Assembly: GCA_029246505.1 (NCBI GenBank) | Contig: JAQWNC010000018.1 | Span: 62,001-126,000 of the forward strand | Length of the DNA stretch: 64,000 bases | Reading direction: 5' to 3' | Origin: Arenicellaceae bacterium | Lineage (GTDB): Bacteria; Pseudomonadota; Gammaproteobacteria; Arenicellales; Arenicellaceae | In this document: piece by piece, positions 60,575 through 62,625 of the stretch | Numbering within the stretch: position 1 is the first letter of the stretch | Layout of the letters: each line of letters opens with the position of its first letter | Notes under the pieces: model-generated | Databases searched by the model: none | Told to the model about the DNA's origin: nothing | Seen by the model: only the letters and a program-made list of their open reading frames with translations | Program-made: the position numbers and the translations under genes

Positions 60575-62128
60575 ATGAACTTATCTTACGCTAGATACAC
60601 CGGCTCGACCGCATTAACTATCATGTTATTGGTCAGCAGCCAGCCGTTAAAAGCGGTCGAAGACTTTGATGACTTTTGGGTAGCCCCCACCGCGATTAAC
60701 GTAAATAATTCTAGCAAATCAGGTCCCTTCGAAGTTAAAACAAGTTGGGTTAACAAACTTGCTGATCGTTCCTCCCAATTGCTTCATCGAGATAGTGTTA
60801 TTTCAACTTTCGCTTCAACCAGCAACGGATTCAATACGTTCGCATTTGCTTCCAGCTACTCCGAACAAGAAAGTAGCGCGGCCATTGGCATACGAGTAGG
60901 TTCACTGAGCTTTTACGCCAATTCTGGTAGTGGTGAATCGTACTCACATAACAATACCAACTATTCTGGTATTGACCCCTATGCGTATCATGGAGGCAAT
61001 ATAGTTGACTACCAATACACAGGCGCTTCTATGGGCTTTGCCACAGGCAAATATTCACAGTTGCAAGCGGGACGAACAACCGTAACTGCAGATCGCCTTG
61101 AAGATCGGCATTCAAGCTTTATTGATTTTTCCAATAATAGGATGTTTGCCCGATACACTTATGTAGAGCGTGGTAGTGATTACGTCGGTTATGGCCTTGA
61201 CGCGGGCATTAAAATTGGCCGTGTAGATCTAGCGTACCAAGAGTTAACAAGCCGCTATGATGTTTCCACACGTCGAATTCGATTTAACTGGAAACAGGGT
61301 CAACAAAACTCGTTCTGGTTCGACCTATCAGCCCATCGAAACGCCGCTTTCGAAGCATATTCTGATTCCAGCATAATGATTAGTTGGCAACACTCGCTAG
61401 GAGGAAATAACCTGGCCAGTTACGCCACCGATGACGAACCCGATGAACCCCAACAACGAGGCACAATGGACCGCGGCGTGCTGATTGGTGGAGCCGTTGC
61501 TGCCGGCGCTGTAGTGCTAAGTTCAGGTAGTGGCGGGCAAGACAGCGCTGATCGCGCTCCTCCTGACACCACACAATCAGCCCCGCAACCAGCGGATGAT
61601 CCCACTATTCTTGACATCTCTGATACGAGTATTGATGAGATGATGTCTGCGATATTTGATTTGGCTAACCAGAATTTCACCGATAACTCGCAAACCACAG
61701 AACCAGACCAGAATAGTATAGGCACTGAGGGAAACCCTCAATTAGATCCAGCCCAACACGATTCAGCCCGTTCACGATTTAATAGCATCAACCCCATATC
61801 TGTAGCCGAGAATAGAGAGTATGGTGGATACGTATATCAAACAGCTGATGGCAGTTTCGCCACCACTAACCCAATAGGTGGTGATGCACAATCTGTATCA
61901 TTAGGGGACCCAAATTTTTCGGTGCCCAATGGTACTACTGCACGCGCGTCTTACCATACCCACGGAGCCTATGATCCCCAATTTGCAAGTGAAGAGTTTT
62001 CTAACACCGATCTTGAAGGTGATCGAGTTCACAATATTGATGGTTACCTCGCAACTCCAATGGGTACATTTTTGTACCACGACGTGACAACCGGACAGAT
62101 AAGTAACTTAGGAACTGTAAATAACTGA
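60575..62128 (+). CDS. Exported beta-rich protein with C-terminal DUF4329-like domain
   Basis: From the ATG at 60575 (517 residues; a GTG six codons upstream is possible) a signal peptide ends near ...SSQPLKA. Residues about 30-285 alternate in the manner of outer-membrane beta-strands (NTFAFASSYS, AAIGIRVGSLSFYA, GASMGFATGKYSQLQAG, GYGLDAGIKIGRVDLAYQEL, SSIMISWQHSL). A Gly/Ala hydrophobic stretch (GVLIGGAVAAGAVVLSSGSGG) and an acidic disordered linker follow. The last 120 residues (PISVAENREYGGYVYQ, ARASYHTHGAYDPQF, SNTDLEGD, IDGYLATPMGTFLY) resemble DUF4329, a domain also found at the ends of RHS-type toxins. E, HxH and SxxD occur in JAMM-like order, suggesting a metal site. It is coupled to the next gene. 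Confidence 0.65.
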   Translation: MNLSYARYTGSTALTIMLLVSSQPLKAVEDFDDFWVAPTAINVNNSSKSGPFEVKTSWVNKLADRSSQLLHRDSVISTFASTSNGFNTFAFASSYSEQESSAAIGIRVGSLSFYANSGSGESYSHNNTNYSGIDPYAYHGGNIVDYQYTGASMGFATGKYSQLQAGRTTVTADRLEDRHSSFIDFSNNRMFARYTYVERGSDYVGYGLDAGIKIGRVDLAYQELTSRYDVSTRRIRFNWKQGQQNSFWFDLSAHRNAAFEAYSDSSIMISWQHSLGGNNLASYATDDEPDEPQQRGTMDRGVLIGGAVAAGAVVLSSGSGGQDSADRAPPDTTQSAPQPADDPTILDISDTSIDEMMSAIFDLANQNFTDNSQTTEPDQNSIGTEGNPQLDPAQHDSARSRFNSINPISVAENREYGGYVYQTADGSFATTNPIGGDAQSVSLGDPNFSVPNGTTARASYHTHGAYDPQFASEEFSNTDLEGDRVHNIDGYLATPMGTFLYHDVTTGQISNLGTVNN

Positions 62129-62625
62129 TGCTTTTAAGATCACTATGTAGCATCTTCATGGCTTTTCAGATTGGATTATTTAGTGGAGCTATTATGGCCG
62201 ATGTTGATGAAATGCTTTTGGAAGCTACGGATTACGTAAATAGTTTGGCTAGCGACTGTGTGTATTTGGATGGATATATCTGTCAGGCTGAGGGGCCAAA
62301 ACCAGGCGAAAGTTCTCGTGTTTATGCGCATGCGACGGATGACACTGGCACTTTGCCAGCGCTGCTGGTGCAAGCCTGGCCTGCAGCCCATGCCCATTTT
62401 TTGGCCGACGAAAATCTCAGTGACCAACAAAAGCAGCTAATGCACTATCGAATCGGCTTTAGTAAACAAGGGAACGAAGTAATTGTACTATTCCGACCAT
62501 TGTTCTTGCCTCAAATGCAAAATGGCAAAGTAGCGGGGAAAATGCGAGCAACCATCGGCAAGGAAATCCAAATAAACGTAGACCTAAACACCTTGAAAGT
62601 TACCCGTTCTATCTACGGAAAATAA
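62128..62625 (+). CDS. Predicted periplasmic partner of the DUF4329-like protein
   Basis: The 165 residues begin with a signal peptide (MLLRSLCSIFMAFQIGLFSGAIMA). A mature part of about 140 residues follows, with two cysteines close together (ASDCVYLDGYICQAE) that could form a disulfide. Its end, EIQINVDLNTLKVTRSIYGK, looks like the terminal beta-hairpin of cystatin- or NTF2-like folds. I do not recognise a named family. Its ATG overlaps the preceding stop (TGATG), so the two are made together. This context would fit an immunity or inhibitor protein for the upstream domain; that is inference only. Confidence 0.6.
   Translation: MLLRSLCSIFMAFQIGLFSGAIMADVDEMLLEATDYVNSLASDCVYLDGYICQAEGPKPGESSRVYAHATDDTGTLPALLVQAWPAAHAHFLADENLSDQQKQLMHYRIGFSKQGNEVIVLFRPLFLPQMQNGKVAGKMRATIGKEIQINVDLNTLKVTRSIYGK

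What the first reader, a model, noticed from the sequence alone, without database searches (positions are those of the whole stretch)
60575..62625. Coupled exported pair: envelope beta-rich protein with DUF4329-like tip plus periplasmic partner
The first gene joins a signal peptide, about 250 residues of barrel-like beta strands, a Gly/Ala hydrophobic hinge, an acidic linker and a C-terminal DUF4329-like domain with E, HTH and SNTD in JAMM-like order. DUF4329-like domains are otherwise known to me at the tips of RHS toxins. The second gene starts on the last base of the first (TGATG) and encodes a secreted, two-cysteine protein with a cystatin/NTF2-like end, as immunity proteins often have. 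Together they look like a non-RHS, outer-membrane-anchored effector or protease with its inhibitor, an architecture I do not know as a described system.
Basis: partly seen in the sequence, partly recalled or inferred. Interest (0 to 1): 0.75.

Follow-up and report, generated by a model that had tools for sequence, protein, structure and literature searches.

The report
Barrel-anchored JAMM protein with secreted partner
A little-known marine bacterium makes an outer-membrane barrel that carries a metalloprotease-type domain best known from bacterial toxins, and the next gene makes a small secreted protein shaped like a protease inhibitor; the pairing looks more like a domesticated enzyme with its regulator than a weapon.

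Summary
Gene 1 (60575-62128) encodes a signal peptide, a predicted 14-strand outer-membrane barrel, a conserved Gly/Ala helix plus SSGS-D-R motif, and a C-terminal DUF4329/Tox-JAB-2 domain. All five JAMM residues are invariant in 59 aligned sequences. Gene 2 (62128-62625) overlaps it by one base and encodes a secreted protein with two conserved Cys and a cystatin/PepSY-like C-terminal half.

In every locus examined, the partner follows a DUF4329 gene. In one deltaproteobacterial MAG a partner homologue sits in the immunity slot of an RHS-DUF4329 toxin, so an inhibitor role is plausible.

The weapon reading is weak. The barrel never carries another tip. The tip is the most conserved part, the barrel the least. 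All parts are under purifying selection. About half of the relatives, including a paralogue in this genome, keep an intact JAMM site with no partner beside them.

Best reading: a conserved envelope JAMM metalloenzyme of Arenicella-like marine gammaproteobacteria, with a cystatin-fold regulator shared with polymorphic toxin-immunity systems. Binding, catalysis and membrane sidedness are untested. I found no description of this architecture in the held literature: a new variant of a known kind.

The parts
60575..62128 (+). Gene 1: exported barrel-DUF4329 (JAMM/JAB-like) protein, 517 aa
   Evidence: ORF; Pfam DUF4329 E=2.4e-27; relatives in 47 of 100 related genomes
60575..60658 (+). Signal peptide of gene 1 (about aa 1-28, by eye)
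   Evidence: Read from the sequence MNLSYARYTGSTALTIMLLVSSQPLKA|VED; no predictor run
60725..61393 (+). Predicted 14-strand outer-membrane beta-barrel (aa 51-273)
   Evidence: AlphaFold2 model; VIA-align: CymA Z 13.4, rmsd 4.1, 205 aligned, model range 50-273; OmpG Z 12.2, OmpF, BamA; alternating hydropathy, mean +0.48 and -0.65 on the two faces (faces assigned by hydropathy)
61478..61555 (+). Gly/Ala hydrophobic helix and SSGS...D323...R327 motif (aa 302-327)
   Evidence: S317 95%, D323 98%, G318 88%, R327 86% conserved in 59 rows; helix 298-315 in the model
61587..61684 (+). In-frame copy of the 3' end of cmk inside the linker (98 bp), specific to this species
   Evidence: Local alignment to L008 7549-7648; same reading frame; absent from gene 1 of the nearest relative L059
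61760..62104 (+). DUF4329 / Tox-JAB-2 domain (aa 396-510)
   Evidence: Pfam PF14220; pLDDT mostly above 90; related members match Prok-JAB, best E=9.7e-5
61817..62011 (+). JAMM-type residues E415 (61817-61819), H461 (61955-61957), H463 (61961-61963), S476 (62000-62002), D479 (62009-62011)
   Evidence: Invariant in alignments of 34, 59 and 25 sequences
62128..62625 (+). Gene 2: exported partner, 165 aa
   Evidence: ORF; relatives in 26 of 109 genomes of the order
62257..62283 (+). Conserved C44-x4-GY-x-C52 motif (probable disulfide)
   Evidence: Conserved in most relatives; missing in L106, L114, L124 and L153
62329..62622 (+). Cystatin/PepSY-like half of the partner (aa 68-165)
   Evidence: AlphaFold2 pLDDT mostly above 90; VIA-align to designed cystatin fold 4r80 Z 8.8, rmsd 3.7, 72 aligned; cystatin D Z 6.6; vibriolysin 3nqz residues 125-202 Z 6.5; Foldseek alone gave nothing significant

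Best explanation
Gene 1 is an outer-membrane-anchored metalloenzyme. A signal peptide exports it (inferred), a 14-strand barrel holds it in the outer membrane (predicted), a conserved Gly/Ala helix and SSGS-D-R segment probably packs against or inside the barrel (inferred), and the C-terminal DUF4329 domain carries a complete JAMM metal site (sequence shown, activity inferred). Gene 2 starts on the last base of gene 1, is exported, and folds into a cystatin/PepSY-like domain that most likely binds and restrains or regulates the DUF4329 domain in the periplasm (inferred). The module is kept by purifying selection as a normal envelope component of these bacteria rather than as a variable weapon. 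Its tip and partner types are shared with RHS toxin-immunity systems, so one was probably recruited from the other; the direction is unknown.
For: Barrel. JAMM residues invariant; Prok-JAB profile matches in 6 of 25 members, best E=9.7e-5; a viral 'JAB domain-containing protein' among fold matches (X2KRF1, E 0.09, prob 0.96). Coupling: all 31 partner homologues in fetched loci, and those in four further genomes, lie directly downstream of a DUF4329 ORF on the same strand; three genomes carry two complete pairs; no other neighbour recurs widely outside one clade. Partner as inhibitor: cystatin, PepSY and metalloprotease-precursor structures among the matches, and a partner homologue after an RHS-DUF4329 protein in L153. 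Not a variable weapon: barrel domain found only with DUF4329 and no other tip; dN/dS by NG86 about 0.10-0.19 in barrel, helix, DUF4329 and partner; mean pairwise distance DUF4329 0.69, partner 1.42, barrel 2.58.
Against: Roughly half of the relatives lack the partner yet keep the JAMM site, so the partner cannot be essential in general. No complex was predicted. Distances of partner and DUF4329 correlate only weakly (r=0.19, permutation p=0.07). Partner and Imm-NTF2-2 profiles do not match. The cystatin match is modest and Foldseek alone gave no significant hit. JAB domains of this clade were proposed to be nucleases rather than peptidases (PMC3482391).
Confidence: 0.5

Rival explanations
1. 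Interbacterial effector with immunity protein: the barrel displays DUF4329 on the cell or on vesicles, it damages neighbours, and the partner protects the producer.
For: DUF4329 is Tox-JAB-2 in polymorphic toxins (PMC3482391). A partner homologue sits in the immunity position of an RHS-DUF4329 locus (L153). RHS-DUF4329 loci elsewhere have small proteins with signal-peptide-like N-termini downstream. The genes overlap by one base.
Against: Gene with intact DUF4329 but no detectable partner in 28 of 54 DUF4329-bearing genomes of the order. No tip exchange. The tip is the most conserved part. Purifying selection on both genes. Stable chromosomal context in the partner-less clade.
Confidence: 0.23
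2. Inverse-autotransporter-like display: the Gly/Ala helix threads through the barrel so that DUF4329 sits on the cell surface as a tethered enzyme, and gene 2 is a periplasmic chaperone or inhibitor used before export.
For: Barrel N-terminal and passenger C-terminal. Intimin and invasin barrels are among the best matches, Z 12.2-12.4, with model ranges 82-325 that reach the helix. The helix and motif are conserved even where no partner exists.
Against: Predicted 14 strands against 12 in intimin/invasin (own knowledge). OmpA-like periplasmic placement is equally compatible.
Confidence: 0.14
3. The DUF4329 domain is not a peptidase: it is a nuclease or a non-catalytic binding domain, and the barrel-partner pair has a structural or transport role.
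For: Nuclease activity was proposed for toxin JAB domains (PMC3482391), and DUF4329 effectors are listed as RNases in two T6SS surveys (PMC7216683, PMC10469887).
Against: A nuclease fixed to the outer membrane would rarely meet nucleic acid (inference). Invariance of all five JAMM residues argues for metal-dependent catalysis of some kind.
Confidence: 0.13

Closest known systems
Tox-JAB-2 / DUF4329 tips of RHS polymorphic toxins with Imm-NTF2-2
   Same: Same Pfam domain with the same JAMM residues; small downstream partner with a signal-peptide-like N-terminus; one RHS-DUF4329 locus (L153) even has the same partner family
   Different: No RHS repeats here; the tip is fused to an outer-membrane barrel; no tip exchange; partner often absent; partner not related to Imm-NTF2-2 by profile
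Inverse autotransporters (intimin, invasin; type Ve)
   Same: N-terminal outer-membrane barrel, C-terminal domain after a linker; fold matches
   Different: Predicted 14 strands; hydrophobic Gly/Ala helix; a JAMM domain instead of Ig-like adhesin domains; surface exposure untested
OmpA-type proteins (barrel plus periplasmic domain)
   Same: Barrel first, soluble domain second, the arrangement expected if DUF4329 faces the periplasm
   Different: OmpA has 8 strands and a peptidoglycan-binding domain (own knowledge); here a JAMM domain with a dedicated exported partner
Cystatins, PepSY domains and metalloprotease prodomains
   Same: Partner residues 68-165 take the cystatin/PepSY-like fold, a fold of protease inhibitors and propeptides (own knowledge)
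   Different: Separate protein with an extra N-terminal helix and Cys motif; no sequence match to Pfam; inhibition untested

Membership tests
DUF4329 (PF14220) | Profile score above the curated cut-off | tested here: met
   95.6 bits against 28.6
JAB/JAMM superfamily | E, HxH, S, D metal-site residues | tested here: met
   Invariant in 34, 59 and 25 sequences
JAB/JAMM superfamily | Profile match to a JAB family | tested here: inconclusive
   6 of 25 DUF4329 members match Prok-JAB, best 9.7e-5; the window's own domain does not
JAB/JAMM superfamily | JAB fold | tested here: inconclusive
   Searches with the whole model were dominated by the barrel; a viral JAB protein among weaker matches; the domain was not folded alone
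JAB/JAMM superfamily | Metal-dependent hydrolysis | not testable with these tools
   Needs biochemistry
RHS polymorphic toxin | RHS repeats before the tip | tested here: not met
   Only DUF4329 found in 34 family members
RHS polymorphic toxin | Conserved N-terminal part with exchangeable tips | tested here: not met
   Barrel domain seen only with DUF4329 in 109 genomes; the apparent exception was an aspartate-kinase-like ORF, a false hit
RHS polymorphic toxin | Toxin accompanied by an immunity gene | tested here: not met
   30 of 59 loci have the partner next door; 26 of 54 genomes. An unrelated immunity gene elsewhere in the genome is not excluded
Imm-NTF2-2 immunity family (PF15631) | Profile match | tested here: not met
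   No match at E<=1; hhalign probability 1.1 against three members
Cystatin/PepSY-like fold (partner) | Helix packed on a curved antiparallel sheet, structural match | tested here: inconclusive
   Z 8.8 to a designed cystatin fold, 6.6 to cystatin D, 6.4-7.4 to PepSY-type proteins; Foldseek alone not significant
Outer-membrane beta-barrel | Antiparallel transmembrane barrel with one hydrophobic face | tested here: met
   Structure searches and hydropathy alternation, all on a predicted model; membrane location not tested experimentally
Inverse autotransporter (type Ve) | C-terminal passenger exposed on the surface | not testable with these tools
   Fold matches to intimin/invasin barrels only

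The most novel reading that the evidence does not exclude
A toxin-immunity type module became a standing envelope system: a 14-strand barrel threads its own C-terminal JAMM protease to the cell surface through a conserved Gly/Ala helix (a new inverse-autotransporter-like type), while an exported cystatin-fold inhibitor keeps the protease silent until export.
Probability: 0.1. Interest if true: 0.8.

Novelty: new variant of a known kind. Interest (0 to 1): 0.5.

Why it matters
JAMM enzymes are known mostly as cytoplasmic peptidases acting on ubiquitin-like proteins, and DUF4329 mostly as an untested RHS toxin tip. A conserved outer-membrane JAMM protein with a cystatin-fold partner would move this chemistry into the bacterial envelope. 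It would also give a case where toxin-immunity parts serve a standing physiological role, and a tractable system to find out what the Tox-JAB-2 domain actually does.

Tried and rejected
Pfam, NCBIfam and PHROGs gave no credible family for the partner. A scan of viral contigs found no relative. The partner was not found in plasmids, nor L153's partner in phages. The DUF4329 DNA did not match E. coli genomes and its protein hit phages only once, weakly. A profile of DUF4329 found no solved relative. The partner profile found no solved relative. A class-wide and a phylum-wide sample showed the partner to be rare outside this order. A barrel-only protein suspected in G095 was an aspartate-kinase-like ORF. 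Mirror-tree comparison was uninformative because barrel distances are near saturation. Gene neighbourhood gave no functional hint beyond the partner. The partner alignment was too diverse for a genome-contig scan, so the gene 1 alignment was used instead.

Full report
WHAT IS THERE. Two genes lie at the reported place. Gene 1 (60575-62128) encodes 517 aa and gene 2 (62128-62625) 165 aa; the stop of the first and the start of the second share one base. Upstream are a rnf/rsxB-type ferredoxin gene and an nth-like gene; downstream is a glycosyltransferase-like gene (named from sequence by eye). The genome (G000, 2.6 Mb, 97.5% complete) belongs with Arenicella-type marine gammaproteobacteria: its nearest relatives in the collection are SI074_bin90 and uncultured Arenicella MAGs.

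GENE 1 ARCHITECTURE. Pfam finds only DUF4329, at aa 396-510, E=2.4e-27. AlphaFold2 with 59 sequences gave mean pLDDT 80 and pTM 0.75, with both folded parts mostly above 85: antiparallel strands at 41-273, a helix at 298-315, a low-confidence linker, and the DUF4329 domain from about 388. Foldseek's list is dominated by transmembrane barrels (bacterial porins, FimD usher, LptD, invasin, and mitochondrial VDAC/TOM), although scores are modest. VIA-align gives CymA Z 13.4 with rmsd 4.1 over 205 residues, model range 50-273, which holds 14 predicted strands; OmpG Z 12.2; intimin/invasin Z 12.2-12.4 with a range reaching residue 325. Strand residues alternate between hydrophobic and polar faces (the faces were assigned by hydropathy, so this is a consistency check). 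The Gly/Ala segment is followed by SSGS, D323 and R327, which are 73-98% conserved across the family, including members without the partner.

THE DUF4329 DOMAIN. E415, H461, H463, S476 and D479 are invariant in alignments of 34, 59 and 25 sequences. Six of 25 diverse members match Pfam Prok-JAB, best E=9.7e-5, though the window's own domain does not. Published analysis had already assigned DUF4329 as Tox-JAB-2, a JAB-family tip of polymorphic toxins with the immunity family Imm-NTF2-2, and had suggested nuclease rather than peptidase activity (PMC3482391). In the held library only five papers mention DUF4329, and none of the passages I read concerns a barrel protein. The biochemical activity is unknown.

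THE PARTNER. Its family has conserved C-x4-GY-x-C, W, HY and G positions. AlphaFold2 gave mean pLDDT 84. Foldseek found nothing significant; its best row was YpmB, a PepSY-type protein. The structural second look put residues 68-165 on the cystatin/PepSY fold: a designed cystatin fold Z 8.8 (rmsd 3.7, 72 aligned), a YpeB C-terminal domain 7.2, cystatin D 6.6, vibriolysin 3nqz 6.5. By the tool's own note a Z under 8 can be chance, so only the top two rows exceed that; the agreement of many cystatin/PepSY rows is what counts. NTF2-like rows are lower (about 4.3-4.9). It has no sequence link to Imm-NTF2-2.

IS THE PAIR REAL. Among fetched loci, all 31 partner homologues lie directly downstream of a DUF4329 ORF on the same strand, as do those of four further genome records. 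In 109 genomes of the order, DUF4329 occurs in 54, the barrel domain in 52 (53 less one false hit) and the partner in 26, always in a genome that has DUF4329. Three genomes carry two full pairs. Two related contigs show a DUF4329 gene, the partner and a second DUF4329 gene overlapping in a row (L144, L149). Outside one clade no other neighbour recurs widely. The partner is rare beyond the order: five of 369 class-level genomes including the window's own, and only the window's own among 398 phylum-level genomes.

TOXIN OR NOT. Evidence for a link to toxin-immunity systems: in L153, a deltaproteobacterial MAG, an RHS-repeat protein with a DUF4329 tip (five RHS repeats) is followed 42 bp later by a partner homologue (HMM E=2e-26) and then by a further RHS-like stretch (read from the sequence). 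Five other DUF4329 proteins that are long or RHS-like (L158, L163, L164, L168, L176) have small downstream ORFs, most with signal-peptide-like or lipoprotein-like N-termini; three of these match Imm-NTF2-2 above its cut-off. Evidence against a weapon here: the barrel is never seen with another tip; the tip is the most conserved and the barrel the least conserved part; dN/dS against the closest relative is about 0.14 for the barrel, 0.10 for DUF4329 and 0.10 for the partner (from the dN and dS); and on a tree of 61 proteins partner presence changes about nine times, with one clade almost wholly partner-less (18 of 19 rows). This genome itself has a partner-less paralogue with the JAMM site intact. 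If the partner were an obligatory antidote, the lineages with no partner anywhere in the genome would be hard to explain, although an unrelated antidote elsewhere is not excluded.

HOW IT MOST LIKELY WORKS. Shown: the sequence architecture, invariance of the JAMM residues, the tight gene coupling, and the partner's independent link to DUF4329 in an RHS locus. Predicted: the barrel and the cystatin-like fold. Inferred: outer-membrane location, metal-dependent hydrolysis, binding of the partner to the DUF4329 domain, and periplasmic regulation. Because gene 2 is exported and the RHS-side partners also appear to be exported, the periplasm is the most likely meeting place, which favours an OmpA-like arrangement; a threaded, surface-exposed arrangement is not excluded. 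Whether the toxin systems borrowed from the barrel family or the reverse cannot be told.

NOVELTY. Each element has known relatives; the combination (outer-membrane barrel + Tox-JAB-2 + cystatin-fold partner) I did not find described in the library. I rate it a new variant of a known kind, of moderate interest.

Noticed in passing
window 61587-61684; L008 7549-7648: A 98-bp fragment of the 3' end of cmk (cytidylate kinase) lies in frame inside gene 1's linker in this species and is absent from the nearest relative's gene 1; a recent capture of a gene fragment.
   Followed up: partly
L006 6453-7841 (G000:C20): A second barrel-DUF4329 gene in the same genome, about 50% identical, JAMM site intact, no partner beside it; the next genes downstream look like fabA and fabB.
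   Followed up: yes
L153 2-1975: RHS-repeat protein with a DUF4329 tip followed by a partner-family gene lacking the Cys motif, then another RHS-like stretch: a natural link between RHS toxins and this partner family.
   Followed up: partly
L144 1-2116; L149 2-2711: Three overlapping genes: DUF4329 protein, partner, then a second, diverged barrel-DUF4329 protein, each overlapping the next by 4 bp.
   Followed up: partly
L160, L162, L166, L167, L170, L172-L175, L177, L178: Short DUF4329 proteins, mostly with signal-peptide-like N-termini, in Rhodobacteraceae and relatives, without barrel and without this partner; L167 has two in a row.
   Followed up: no
L229 1635-3347 (G062:C157): A 570-aa protein with a signal-peptide-like N-terminus, a weak DUF4329 match and no barrel, in a genome of the same order.
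   Followed up: no
L079-L081, L085 and related loci such as L113, L115, L127: In the partner-less clade gene 1 sits in a stable context, just upstream of an FAD-dependent oxidoreductase and near a sarcosine-oxidase-alpha-like gene (named by eye), which points to a resident chromosomal gene.
   Followed up: partly
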